Source: Ancylobacter mangrovi (GTDB taxonomy: Bacteria > Pseudomonadota > Alphaproteobacteria > Rhizobiales > Xanthobacteraceae). From it: a DNA stretch of 64,000 nt. The translations under genes and the position numbers were made by a program. Numbering within the stretch: position 1 is the stretch's first letter; each line of letters starts with the position of its first letter. The DNA is taken from assembly GCF_024752355.1 (NCBI RefSeq), contig NZ_JANTHZ010000002.1:372001-436000 (forward strand), read 5' to 3'. Under the pieces are notes generated by a model. That model saw nothing but the letters and a program-made list of their open reading frames with translations, did no database searches and was not told the DNA's origin. Shown piece after piece: positions 19,878 through 31,952 of this stretch.

Positions 19878-20327
19878 TTGCTTTTACTGCCGTTCAAGAT
19901 CGATCAGGTGCGGATGGCGCTGCCGCTCGAGAAGGTTCTGCGCGTCGAGGCGATGGTCGAGACGCTGCCCCTGCCGCGGCCGGTGCCCAACGTCGCGGGC
20001 GGCATGATCCATGGCGGGCGGTTCGTCGCCATATACGGATTGCGCGGCAAGCTCGGATACGATCCTCGTCCGTCCGAAGCCGATGATTGCATCGTGCTGG
20101 CGAAGGCCCGCGACGAGGTGGTCGGCATCGTCGTCGACGAGGTGGCCGCGGTGATCGAGGTCCCGGCGGCGGACGTCTCCCGCTACGGGCTGGAGCGCGA
20201 CGGCGAGACCATCGCCGGCGCGGCGGTCATCGACGACGACATCCTCCTGATCACCGATCTCGACCGCTTCCTCTCCGACGAGGAGCGGCTGGAGCTCGAC
20301 GCGGTGCGGCGGGAGTTCGCGCAATGA
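19878..20327 (+). CDS. CheW-like coupling protein (WspB-like), first gene of the operon
   Basis: This is a 149-residue single CheW domain. CheW adaptors link receptor signalling domains to CheA. It begins FKIDQVRMALPLEKVLRVE and has the IHGGRFVAIYGLRGKLG segment and the C-terminal DDDILLITDLDRFLSDEE typical of the fold. The start is TTG at 19878, supported by AGGAG eight bases upstream and by the conserved domain beginning there; no ATG fits. It overlaps the next gene by 4 bases (ATGA). Its position before CheR-TPR and a second CheW matches WspB in Wsp operons and CheW3a in Che3 clusters. Confidence 0.85.
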   Translation: MLLLPFKIDQVRMALPLEKVLRVEAMVETLPLPRPVPNVAGGMIHGGRFVAIYGLRGKLGYDPRPSEADDCIVLAKARDEVVGIVVDEVAAVIEVPAADVSRYGLERDGETIAGAAVIDDDILLITDLDRFLSDEERLELDAVRREFAQ

Positions 20328-21649
20328 CGCCCGAGCGCTCCGTCGATCCCGAGCTGCTGGCCGAGGTCCGCGACCTTTTCGTCTCGCGCTTCGGGCTGCT
20401 GCGCGCCAGCCTCGGCGACGACGAGCTGGCCCACCGGCTGGTCGCCGGGCTTGGACCGCAGCTCGGCTCCCGGGCCCGGCTGAAGGAACTGCTGGCGCGG
20501 GCCGCCGGCCAGCCGCTCGACGGGCCGGAGCTGCAGCTCCTGATCCGAGCCATCACCATCCGCGAATCCTCGCTGCTGCGCCATCTGTCCTGGTTCGAGC
20601 TGCTCGCCCGCCACGTGGTCGACCCGCTGATCGCCGCCCGCCGCGCCACCGGCCGGCGCGACGTCGCGATCTGGAGCGCGGGCTGCTCCAGCGGCGAGGA
20701 GGCGTACGGCCTCGCCCTCCTGTTCGCCGAAAGGCTGCCCGACCTCGCCGACTGGGACATCCGCATCATCGGCACGGACCTGTGCGCGAGCGCGGTCGAA
20801 GAGGCCCGGCGCGGGCGCTACCGCACCTGGTCGCTGCGCGAGGTCTCGCCCGAGCGGCGGGCGCTCCACTTCCGGCAGCAGGACGACCAGTTCGAGGCCG
20901 GTGCGCCGCTGCGGGCGCTGGTGACGTTCGGCCTCGGCGACCTGCTGGACCCGGAAAGCGGCCCCTGGACCACGCTGAAGCCGGCCTTCGACATCATCGT
21001 GTGCCGCAACGTGCTGATGCATCTCGAACCGTCGGCGCGGCGGCGGGTGACCGAGCATCTCGCCGGCCGGCTGGCCCCGCAGGGCGTGCTGGTCAGCGCG
21101 CCGTCCGAAGCCTCGCCCGAACTGTTCCACCCGCTGCTGCGGAGCGACCACGAGGAACTGCTGCTGTTCCGCCGGCCGCCACGCGCGAAATCGTCGGCCG
21201 GTCTCGCGCCAGCCACTCGCCCGGCGGGCGCTCCCATGCCGCGCGCGGCCGAACGCCCGGCCGCCATGCCGCCGCCGAGCCAGGCGGCCACCCCGTCGTC
21301 CGCGCCGCTCGCGCGCGACGAACTCGTCGCCCATCTCGACGCGCTGATCGCCGCCGGCCGCCTCGCGGAAGCCCGCCGCCTCTGCGCGCTGGCGATGGCG
21401 CGGGCGCCGCTCGATTCCGGCCTCGTGCACCTGATGGCGACGCTGCAGGAGATGGAGGGCGACCATCACGGCGCCTTCCAGAGCCTGAAGCGCGCGCTCT
21501 ATATCGACGGCGCCGACGGCTCGGCGCAGCTCCGCCTCGCCGGGCTGCAGCACCGGCTGCGGCGCGGCCAGGGACGGCCGGCCGGGAACGGCCCGGCGAA
21601 CGAGCCGCGCGGCAGCGGCCGACGGGGGGAGACGCGCGACCGTGTCTGA
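20324..21649 (+). CDS. CheR methyltransferase with C-terminal TPR region (WspC-like)
   Basis: CheR methylates glutamates on chemoreceptors using SAM, setting their sensitivity. The 441-residue protein has a CheR N-terminal helical part, a SAM domain with the motif SAGCSSGEEAYGLA (about 118-131) and FDIIVCRNVLMH, then a Pro/Ala-rich linker (about 288-325) and a C-terminal TPR-like helical segment (about 330-420, with AEARRLCALAMARAPLDSGL). CheR with such a TPR tail is typical of WspC and of alternative-function chemosensory systems rather than flagellar ones. The start ATG overlaps the preceding stop; the end overlaps the next gene by 8 bases. Confidence 0.92.
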   Translation: MTPERSVDPELLAEVRDLFVSRFGLLRASLGDDELAHRLVAGLGPQLGSRARLKELLARAAGQPLDGPELQLLIRAITIRESSLLRHLSWFELLARHVVDPLIAARRATGRRDVAIWSAGCSSGEEAYGLALLFAERLPDLADWDIRIIGTDLCASAVEEARRGRYRTWSLREVSPERRALHFRQQDDQFEAGAPLRALVTFGLGDLLDPESGPWTTLKPAFDIIVCRNVLMHLEPSARRRVTEHLAGRLAPQGVLVSAPSEASPELFHPLLRSDHEELLLFRRPPRAKSSAGLAPATRPAGAPMPRAAERPAAMPPPSQAATPSSAPLARDELVAHLDALIAAGRLAEARRLCALAMARAPLDSGLVHLMATLQEMEGDHHGAFQSLKRALYIDGADGSAQLRLAGLQHRLRRGQGRPAGNGPANEPRGSGRRGETRDRV

Positions 21650-30814: not shown

Positions 30815-31952
30815 GTGCCGGTTCCTAGTTCTGGACGACGAGCCCGACATCGGCGCCCTGCTGGTGACGGCGATCCGCATGCTCAACTACGAGGCCCGCT
30901 CGGTCACCACCTTCGAGGATTTCGACCGGGCGCTGGCCGAGTGGCGCCCCACCCACATCACGCTCGACCTGCAGATGCCGGGCTATGACGGGGTGGAGAC
31001 CATCCGCGCCCTCGCCGAGCGCGGCAGCAATGCGCGCATCGTGCTGGTCAGCGGGGTCGACGCCAAGGTGCTCGAGATGGCGGCCCTGCTCGGGCGCGAG
31101 CGCGGGCTCGACATCGCTGGGACGCTGACCAAGCCGTGGGGCATGGCGAGGCTCAACGAGCTGCTGACCCGGATCGTGCACGAGAACCCGCTCGGCGCCG
31201 ACGCCATCGCCAAGGGCATCGAGAACGACGAGTTCCGGCTCTTCATGCAGCCCAAGGTGCGCCTGCCCGGCGGGCGGATCACCGGCTTCGAGGCGCTGGT
31301 GCGCTGGAATCACCCCCGGCTCGGCCTGCAATCGCCGATCAACTTCATCCCGCTCGCCGAGCAGAGCGGACTGATCGAGCCGCTGACGCGCTGGATTCTC
31401 GGGCGCGCGGCCGACGTCCTCGCCGGCTGGAAAAGCGAGGGCATCGACGCGCAGGTCTCGGTCAACCTGTCGACGCGCAACCTGATGTCGCTCACCGTGG
31501 CCGACGAGTTCGCCGAGATCGTGCGCGCGCGCGGTCTCGACTGCTCCTGCTTCATCCTGGAGCTGACGGAGAGCGCGGCGATCACCAACCTCGTCGACGC
31601 GCTCGACATTCTGGTGCGACTGCGGCTGAAGCAGTTCGCGCTGTCGATCGATGATTTCGGCACCGGCTACTCGTCGCTGGCGCAGCTCCAGCGCCTGCCC
31701 TTCTCCGAGCTGAAGATCGACCGCTCCTTCGTCTCCGCCTGTGCCGCCTCGGCCGAGGCAACCAACACCATCCGCGCCATCGTCGAGCTGGCCCGCCGGC
31801 TGGAGCTCGACCTGGTGGCGGAAGGCGTGGAGACGGAGGCGGTCGAGCGCACGCTGATCGGGCTCGGCATCACCCATGCGCAGGGCTTCCGCTACGGCCG
31901 GCCGGAGCCGGCGGAGGTGTGGTCGCCGCGCCTGCGCTGCCAGGTGGCCTGA
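30807..31952 (+). CDS. REC-EAL response regulator, predicted c-di-GMP phosphodiesterase
   Basis: This is a 381-residue response regulator with an N-terminal receiver (about 4-122; Asp54 in TLDLQMPG, Lys109) and a C-terminal EAL domain (about 130-370). The EAL active-site set looks complete: Glu162 in FEALVRW, the Asn of VNLS, the Glu of LELTES, both Asp of DDFGTGYSS, the Lys of LKIDRSF, the Glu of AEGVETE and the Gln of AQGF. It is therefore predicted to hydrolyse c-di-GMP under phosphorylation control. It occupies the place that WspR (REC-GGDEF) has in Wsp operons. The start overlaps the kinase stop by 8 bases. It is the last gene; a convergent ATPase gene ends 30 bases away. Confidence 0.94.
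   Translation: MPECRFLVLDDEPDIGALLVTAIRMLNYEARSVTTFEDFDRALAEWRPTHITLDLQMPGYDGVETIRALAERGSNARIVLVSGVDAKVLEMAALLGRERGLDIAGTLTKPWGMARLNELLTRIVHENPLGADAIAKGIENDEFRLFMQPKVRLPGGRITGFEALVRWNHPRLGLQSPINFIPLAEQSGLIEPLTRWILGRAADVLAGWKSEGIDAQVSVNLSTRNLMSLTVADEFAEIVRARGLDCSCFILELTESAAITNLVDALDILVRLRLKQFALSIDDFGTGYSSLAQLQRLPFSELKIDRSFVSACAASAEATNTIRAIVELARRLELDLVAEGVETEAVERTLIGLGITHAQGFRYGRPEPAEVWSPRLRCQVA

What the first reader, a model, noticed from the sequence alone, without database searches (positions are those of the whole stretch)
19878..31952. Wsp/Che3-like chemosensory operon whose last gene is a c-di-GMP phosphodiesterase
Seen: eight same-strand genes with 1-14 base overlaps or a 15-base gap, in the order CheW, CheR-TPR, CheW with N-terminal helix, MCP, CheA-REC, CheB, hybrid kinase, REC-EAL. 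Known: Wsp operons (WspA-F, WspR) share the CheW/CheR-TPR/CheW/CheA-REC/CheB set but end in a REC-GGDEF cyclase; the Che3 cluster of Rhodospirillum centenum has the same core plus the hybrid kinase CheS3 and controls cyst formation. Inference: here receptor activation would be wired to c-di-GMP breakdown, the opposite sign to Wsp, with an extra kinase layer. I know of no described system with this exact set, but I cannot search.
Basis: partly seen in the sequence, partly recalled or inferred. Interest (0 to 1): 0.78.

Follow-up and report, generated by a model that had tools for sequence, protein, structure and literature searches.

The report
Chemoreceptor operon wired to c-di-GMP breakdown
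A bacterial chemotaxis-type sensing operon appears to control, through a second kinase rather than directly, an enzyme that destroys the signalling molecule cyclic di-GMP; other bacteria carry similar circuits, but whether sensing turns the enzyme on or off is still open.

Summary
The eight genes are real, intact and bounded: CheW, CheR-TPR, CheW, dCache receptor, CheA-REC, CheB, hybrid kinase (REC-GAF-GAF-PAS-HisKA-HATPase-REC), REC-EAL. It is an ACF-type chemosensory operon, neither Wsp nor Che3.

The same set, output genes divergent, lies on Alteromonas macleodii plasmid pMIT1002. The CheA proteins of these systems are not one clade (AU p = 2e-6), so the coupling probably arose more than once.

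A hybrid kinase directly before REC-EAL is common (at least 16 of 37 other places), and only one of the 16 is che-linked. Only that kinase has an N-terminal REC-linker module. In 24 of 28 neighbourhoods the module follows CheB, is fused to CheB, or lies beside a che block. With one exception, receivers split into {CheA-REC, CheB, kinase REC1} and {kinase REC2, EAL-REC}.

So CheA most likely feeds the kinase's REC1, and the kinase feeds REC-EAL. 'Opposite sign to Wsp' is not secured: in Che3 the equivalent step inhibits the second kinase.

New variant of a known kind; a 2012 survey already counted one REC-EAL regulator in such clusters.

The parts
19588..19623 (+). terminator-like hairpin of the upstream thioredoxin gene (19230-19550), separating it from the operon
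19781..19870 (+). AT-rich (37% GC) stretch before the first gene, possible promoter region
   Evidence: the scan found no + strand sigma-70-type match there
19878..20327 (+). CheW (TTG start, 149 aa)
   Evidence: Pfam CheW 2.3e-19
20324..21649 (+). CheR methyltransferase with C-terminal TPR-like repeats (441 aa)
   Evidence: Pfam CheR 3.7e-40; TPR_19 just over cut-off on the C-terminal piece
21642..22283 (+). second CheW with N-terminal extension (213 aa)
   Evidence: Pfam CheW 9.7e-18 at residues 72-201
22299..24404 (+). chemoreceptor dCache_1-HAMP-MCPsignal (701 aa); hydrophobic segments at residues 1-35, 158-177 and 288-311, the middle one inside the dCache match
24401..26635 (+). CheA-REC: Hpt(H54)-HATPase-CheW-REC(D674), 744 aa
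26632..27696 (+). CheB: REC(D59)-methylesterase, TTG start, 354 aa
   Evidence: Pfam 1.5e-55; motifs
27683..30814 (+). hybrid kinase REC1(D67)-linker-GAF-GAF-PAS-HisKA(H681)-HATPase-REC2(D970), 1043 aa, no hydrophobic segment found; residues about 15-215 are the che-linked REC-linker module
30807..31952 (+). REC(D54)-EAL c-di-GMP phosphodiesterase, 381 aa, recalled catalytic positions present

Best explanation
A chemoreceptor-array pathway of the ACF kind with a two-tier phosphorelay output. A periplasmic cue read by the dCache receptor changes CheA activity through the two CheWs, with CheR and CheB setting adaptation. CheA~P (H54) is drained by its own REC (D674), by CheB (D59) and by REC1 (D67) of the hybrid kinase. 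REC1~P, together with GAF/PAS inputs inside the cell, gates the kinase (H681). The kinase phosphorylates or dephosphorylates the REC of REC-EAL (D54), with REC2 (D970) as competitor or sink, and so sets c-di-GMP hydrolysis. Shown here: gene content, order, motifs, recurrence, the module/che association and the receiver groups. Inferred: each phosphotransfer step, the phosphodiesterase activity and that the cue is periplasmic. Left open: the sign from receptor to phosphodiesterase.
For: Domains and motifs. REC-EAL aligns with RocR over residues 3-370 at 8e-50. Same order in G283 (L160/L174) and G744 (L214); same set, divergent, on pMIT1002 (L177). A hybrid kinase similar to the window's lies within 60 bp upstream of REC-EAL in 15 of 37 other neighbourhoods; L122 has a less similar one 47 bp upstream, so at least 16 of 37. 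The N-terminal REC-linker module is in the one che-linked kinase of the 15 and in 0 of the other 14; L122's kinase shows a HAMP domain and one receiver only. In a search by kinase residues 1-360 alone, the best module ORF lies directly after CheB in 14, is fused to CheB in 9 and lies beside a che block in 1 of 28 neighbourhoods (CheB domain in 9 of 30 module proteins). Receiver tree: branch at 100/99 separates {CheA-REC, CheB-REC, kinase REC1} from {EAL-REC, kinase REC2}, except L214's C-terminal receiver. Precedent: CheA3 phosphorylates REC1 of CheS3 (PMC3868531, passages).
Against: No phosphotransfer or c-di-GMP data. The receiver tree has 122 columns and long branches, and grouping may reflect descent, not partner; L214's C-terminal receiver falls on the CheA side. 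In L160 the C-terminal receiver, as read, ends without the conserved lysine motif (sequence printed), so REC2 need not work everywhere. In REC-EAL-led searches only 1 of 37 other places has che genes, so the coupling is rare. CheR-TPR relatives: 1 of 41 family genomes (own only) and 2 of 289 class genomes (at most five candidates scored per genome). 12 of the 28 module neighbourhoods come from one family (f240), so they are not independent.
Confidence: 0.66

Rival explanations
1. CheA phosphorylates REC-EAL directly, as WspE does WspR; the hybrid kinase is a side branch. Receptor activation then simply lowers c-di-GMP.
For: REC-EAL lies in the same operon as CheA and its receiver motifs are present. 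In Wsp R-systems the kinase acts directly on the output receiver (PMC8552884, passages).
Against: The EAL receivers group away from CheA-REC, CheB-REC and REC1. REC-EALs of this type often follow a hybrid kinase without any che genes (at least 16 of 37 have the adjacent kinase, one of these with che genes).
Confidence: 0.2
2. Inverse sign: REC1~P inhibits the kinase as in Che3, so receptor activation lowers REC-EAL~P and raises c-di-GMP, the same net sign as Wsp. This is a sub-case of the best explanation, not an alternative to it.
For: CheA3 phosphorylating CheS3 REC1 turns CheS3 off (PMC3868531, passages). REC1 at the N-terminus of a kinase is the same layout.
Against: Different kinase family: HisKA here, HWE in CheS3. 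I saw no data on sign in any HisKA member.
Confidence: 0.45
3. The REC-EAL is a degenerate c-di-GMP receptor or regulator without catalysis.
For: Some EAL proteins act only as receptors (recalled); LapD and FimX are among the weaker matches.
Against: Recalled catalytic and loop-6 positions present; much better match to active phosphodiesterases than to FimX or LapD.
Confidence: 0.06
4. The kinase and REC-EAL are an unrelated pair that happens to share an operon with a che block.
For: Kinase plus REC-EAL is a stand-alone pair elsewhere.
Against: The order is found in three genomes including the window's, plus one divergent case, and the REC-linker module is fused to CheB in 9 of 28 neighbourhoods.
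Confidence: 0.05

Closest known systems
Che3 of Rhodospirillum centenum (CheA3-CheS3-CheY3)
   Same: CheW x2, CheR, MCP, CheA-REC, CheB and a second kinase with N-terminal REC that CheA phosphorylates; CheA acts through the second kinase (PMC3868531, passages read).
   Different: CheS3 is REC-REC-PAS-HWE kinase and its partner is a single-domain CheY3; here the kinase is HisKA with GAFs and a C-terminal REC, and the output is REC-EAL. Indioceanicola L104 carries a Che3-type kinase after CheB.
Wsp (R- and H-systems)
   Same: CheW x2, CheR-type, MCP, CheA-REC, CheB; the R-system output is a c-di-GMP enzyme, the H-system output a REC-kinase (PMC8552884, passages read).
   Different: MCP is fourth, not first; dCache_1 not 4HB sensor; REC-EAL not REC-GGDEF; kinase gene 3' not 5'; Wsp reported only in beta- and gammaproteobacteria (PMC8552884).
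Hybrid kinase plus REC-EAL pairs of the PvrSR / RocSR / VieSA kind (pair names recalled)
   Same: Adjacent HisKA hybrid kinase and REC-EAL; best NCBIfam match of the REC-EAL is PvrR.
   Different: PvrR match 226.5 bits against a cut-off of 580; here the kinase has no hydrophobic segment and carries the che-linked REC-linker module.
CheA-Pch phosphodiesterase of Pseudomonas aeruginosa
   Same: Chemotaxis kinase CheA and its phosphorylation state control a c-di-GMP phosphodiesterase (PMC3861689, abstract and outline seen).
   Different: By its abstract and headings that works by complex formation of the motility CheA with a phosphodiesterase at the pole; no dedicated operon or phosphorelay was seen in what I read.

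Membership tests
ACF-type chemosensory system | multidomain response regulators in the che cluster | tested here: met
   hybrid kinase and REC-EAL; definition from PMC3447774 (passages)
ACF-type chemosensory system | CheR fused to TPR | tested here: met
   CheR; TPR_19 25.6 bits against cut-off 25 on the C-terminal piece only; TPR hits over cut-off in L160, under it in L214
ACF-type chemosensory system | assignment by the published CheA class models | not tested
   models not held
Wsp | wspA-wspF synteny with the MCP gene first (order recalled) | tested here: not met
   MCP is the fourth gene
Wsp | output WspR (REC-GGDEF) or WspH (REC-kinase 5' of the operon) | tested here: not met
   REC-EAL, kinase 3'
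Wsp | 4HB_MCP_1 sensor in WspA (PMC8846402, passage) | tested here: not met
   dCache_1 1.9e-20
Wsp | sequence similarity to named Wsp proteins | not tested
   no Wsp reference obtained; no CheA was found in L180 (Burkholderia)
Che3 (R. centenum) | CheA-REC, CheB, CheR, 2 CheW, MCP plus second kinase | tested here: met
Che3 (R. centenum) | CheS3-type REC-REC-PAS-HWE kinase | tested here: not met
   REC-GAF-GAF-PAS-HisKA-HATPase-REC; L104 has the HWE form
Che3 (R. centenum) | single-domain CheY3 in the cluster | tested here: not met
   REC-EAL instead; a distant CheY elsewhere was not searched
Che3 (R. centenum) | CheA phosphorylates REC1 of the second kinase | not testable with these tools
   consistent receiver grouping only
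PvrR equivalog (NCBIfam NF052596) | score over curated cut-off 580 bits | tested here: not met
   226.5 bits
Active EAL phosphodiesterase | EAL, N, ExxE, DDFGTGYS, K, E, Q positions (recalled set) | tested here: met

The most novel reading that the evidence does not exclude
The N-terminal REC-linker module is a transferable plug. Evolution has repeatedly taken a stand-alone hybrid kinase/REC-EAL pair and replaced its own sensor with this module, which places c-di-GMP hydrolysis under a chemoreceptor array. The same plug, placed after or fused to CheB, carries kinases, GGDEF-EAL and other outputs across ACF systems. In that case the module sequence alone would predict which proteins CheA addresses.
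Probability: 0.5. Interest if true: 0.7.

Novelty: new variant of a known kind. Interest (0 to 1): 0.55.

Why it matters
A 2022 review places the chemosensory systems that modulate c-di-GMP in two classes, ACF and type IV pilus; the ACF case in the passages I saw is Wsp, which drives a cyclase (PMC8846402, passages read). A dedicated array-to-kinase-to-phosphodiesterase operon, with copies in separate lineages, makes the sign and logic of the opposite enzyme testable. Alteromonas macleodii MIT1002, a marine isolate from a Prochlorococcus enrichment (PMC4551879, start of abstract in the listing), carries such a set on plasmid pMIT1002. The REC-linker module offers a sequence rule for finding CheA's partners in ACF clusters.

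Tried and rejected
CheA as query for whole-genome searches never returned an answer; CheR-TPR, REC-EAL and the kinase N-terminus were used instead. L091 first looked like a CheB plus REC-EAL case; Pfam showed REC-HK after CheB and a convergent REC-PAS-GGDEF-EAL. L180 (Burkholderia) was fetched as a possible Wsp reference; no CheA was found, so it was dropped from the CheA tree. L046 has no CheB found. L106 and L178 show an EAL regulator and a response regulator with no che genes annotated nearby and were not used further. Single origin of the REC-EAL-linked CheAs was rejected. Single origin of the window and L160 REC-EAL proteins was not rejected (p = 0.269), nor was window plus L214 for CheA (p = 0.108). 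My gene caller missed cheR and cheA in the window and put antisense ORFs there; those two were taken from the ORF lists. Structure prediction was not used: sequence similarity already gave the domain families.
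Full report
Observation. The window holds eight same-strand genes at 19878-31952: CheW, CheR, CheW, MCP, CheA-REC, CheB, hybrid kinase, REC-EAL. Pfam supports the named domains over their curated cut-offs, except the CheR TPR, which needed a scan of the C-terminal piece alone (TPR_19, 25.6 against 25 bits). Junctions are six overlaps of 4, 8, 4, 4, 14 and 8 bases and one 15-base gap. A terminator-like hairpin at 19588-19623 follows the upstream thioredoxin gene. 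A 37% GC stretch at 19781-19870 precedes the first gene. The 3' end of a convergent P-type ATPase lies 29 bases after the last stop. The operon is therefore most likely exactly these eight genes.

Integrity. The phospho-acceptors and pockets of all five receivers, the CheA P1 histidine (H54), the kinase H-, N-, G1- and G2-boxes (H681), the CheB Ser/His/Asp and the EAL catalytic positions, all as recalled motif sets, are present. REC-EAL aligns over residues 3-370 with RocR at 8e-50, and its EAL domain with MucR at 8.6e-52. The receptor has dCache_1, HAMP and MCPsignal domains. The hybrid kinase has no hydrophobic segment over the threshold used, so it is probably soluble.

Recurrence, searched from the output side. 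REC-EAL as query found 13 of 150 order genomes at E <= 1e-60 (own included) and 23 of 385 class genomes at E <= 1e-70 (own included). The neighbourhoods of all 37 other places were fetched; five are under 19 kb because contigs end (L120, L124, L151, L157, L164), so che genes could be missed there. One, L160 from G283, has CheR, CheW, MCP, CheA-REC, CheB, REC-PAS-HisKA-HATPase-REC and REC-EAL in the same order. The upstream CheW was found on the extended stretch L174. The other 36 show no CheB or CheR match and no CheA match beyond its receiver by tblastn; L169 has MCP matches. A hybrid kinase scoring over 80 bits to the window's lies within 60 bp upstream of REC-EAL in 15 of 37. L122 has a further, less similar HAMP-HisKA-HATPase-REC-Hpt kinase 47 bp upstream, so the true count is at least 16. 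Of the 15, only the che-linked L160 kinase has the N-terminal REC-linker module; in the other 14 that query hits only the C-terminal receiver or nothing. G480, of the same genus as G283, has a HAMP-PAS-HisKA-HATPase-REC kinase with REC-EAL and no che genes at that place. The pair thus looks like a stand-alone unit whose input has been exchanged.

Recurrence, searched from the input side. Kinase residues 1-360 alone found 26 of 398 phylum genomes at E <= 1e-30 (own included). I fetched 28 neighbourhoods, holding 29 of the 53 other places and covering all 25 other genomes; 12 of the 28 are from one family, f240. Counting the best module ORF in each, it lies directly after CheB in 14 of 28 and is fused to CheB in one ORF in 9. 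It lies beside a divergent che block in 1 (L213). No CheB was found on the same strand in 4 (L228, L229, L235, L237; L237 has other che genes nearby). Of 30 module proteins (these 28 plus the window and L160), 25 carry HisKA and 25 HATPase, 9 CheB, 5 Hpt, 3 GGDEF and 3 EAL, and 1 SpoIIE. The linker has a clear consensus, with L185 invariant and R164, Q166, T174, Y175 and N182 nearly so. G744 (L214) repeats the whole eight-gene order, with an Hpt added to the kinase and a 4HB receptor. G608 and G901 (L211, L212) have CheW, CheR, CheW, CheA-REC and CheB followed by one protein with REC, GAF, PAS, GGDEF and EAL domains and a second receiver stretch; no MCP was seen in the row.

Named example. The plasmid collection gave Alteromonas macleodii MIT1002 pMIT1002 (NZ_OX359242.1) as best record for REC-EAL and for the kinase, and it also matched CheB. 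The plasmid holds CheW-CheR-hypothetical-CheW-MCP-CheA-REC-CheB. Divergent from these are a REC-EAL (39% identity) and a REC-x-HisKA-HATPase-REC kinase that matches window residues 19-355 at 38% and 498-1036 at 27%. L213 (G889) has an identical CheA row and is counted as the same lineage. A near-DNA search found no other plasmid with this cluster (1 record, itself).

Origins. A 26-row CheA tree rejects one clade for the five REC-EAL-linked rows (AU p = 2.2e-6). Without the long-branched Alteromonas rows it still does (p = 8e-5 for window, L160 and L214). Pairwise, window plus L160 gives p = 0.024 and window plus L214 p = 0.108, not rejected. A 38-row REC-EAL tree does not group window with L160, but the test does not reject grouping (p = 0.269). 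At least two separate couplings of a che block to REC-EAL is the better reading. The window row is itself long-branched in the CheA tree, which is a caveat.

Wiring. A 24-row receiver tree from the window, L160, L214 and L177, plus two pairs without che (L113, L173), has a branch at 100/99. On one side are all four CheA-REC, four CheB-REC and four kinase REC1, with L214's C-terminal receiver. On the other side are six EAL-RECs and five kinase REC2s. L160's C-terminal receiver, as read, ends without the conserved lysine motif. Receiver kinship is only a proxy for partner choice. Together with the module/che association it still points to CheA to REC1 and kinase to REC-EAL, rather than CheA to REC-EAL. 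In R. centenum Che3, CheA3 phosphorylates CheS3 REC1 and turns CheS3 off (PMC3868531; abstract, introduction, start of results and passages read).

Known systems. Wsp R- and H-systems were reported only in beta- and gammaproteobacteria, with WspR or WspH as output (PMC8552884, passages read; WspHRR also in PMC4324302, passages). The window fails the order, output and sensor tests. Che3 shares the core but differs in kinase type and output; Indioceanicola L104 shows a Che3-type kinase with receivers, PAS and HWE after CheB. A survey of cheR-TPR clusters counted some 20 regulators with GGDEF, one with EAL and two with both, and histidine-kinase modules in around 40% (PMC3447774, passages read). 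A REC-EAL in such a cluster is therefore not unprecedented as a count. In P. aeruginosa, CheA controls the phosphodiesterase Pch, with which it forms a complex (PMC3861689, abstract and outline). My ten paper searches listed no paper whose title or abstract start describes a che operon with hybrid kinase and REC-EAL; I did not read most listed papers, and the library lacks most subscription papers.

Distribution. CheR-TPR relatives: 1 of 41 family genomes at E <= 1e-30 (own, every candidate of the first look scored except 2 of 44 in the own genome). In the class, 2 of 289 genomes at E <= 1e-35 (own and G361); G361's contig has the same length as the Niveispirillum plasmid of L103. In G283's order, 1 of 4 genomes at 1e-50. 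Searches scored at most five candidates per genome and at most 13, so those are lower bounds. The host genome has 11 EAL matches and 2 CheB matches.

Verdict. This is a real, intact ACF-type operon. It is a new variant of a known kind, most likely a receptor-array to hybrid-kinase to phosphodiesterase relay with unresolved sign.

Noticed in passing
L174:12288-12983 (G283): A LapG-like protease gene (PF06035, 3.6e-17) lies just upstream of the G283 che/REC-EAL operon on the same strand; LapG is c-di-GMP-controlled adhesin release in known systems (recalled), which would fit an attachment output.
   Followed up: partly
L217, L218, L222, L223, L224, L227, L231, L233, L238: CheB fused in one ORF to the REC-linker-kinase protein (9 of 28 neighbourhoods).
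   Followed up: partly
L214:18868-19989: A second REC-EAL gene upstream of the G744 che block, so the block is flanked by two REC-EALs.
   Followed up: no
L091:1723-3960: REC-PAS-GGDEF-EAL gene convergent with an MCP-CheA-REC-CheB-REC-kinase row.
   Followed up: no
L105:11865-17605: Sinorhizobium medicae pSymA che cluster (CheA and CheB annotated) sits next to Flp/Tad pilus genes.
   Followed up: no
L111:5476-11490 (host contig C17): The host's only other CheB domain (358-aa ORF) lies between a CHASE3-GAF-kinase-REC protein and a REC-HWE kinase; no CheA or MCP match was seen beside it.
   Followed up: partly
window 34882-37895: DUF2076, Bax inhibitor-1-like protein, a protein without Pfam match and an ECF-type sigma factor in a row on the minus strand.
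   Followed up: no
L177:2087-4984: pMIT1002 carries a further PAS histidine kinase with a dCache match under its cut-off directly after the REC-EAL/kinase pair, a possible third input.
   Followed up: no
L177:9451-10781 and L213:12645-13976: The CheR of pMIT1002 is annotated as 365 aa plus a separate small ORF, while the G889 copy reads as one 443-aa ORF.
   Followed up: no
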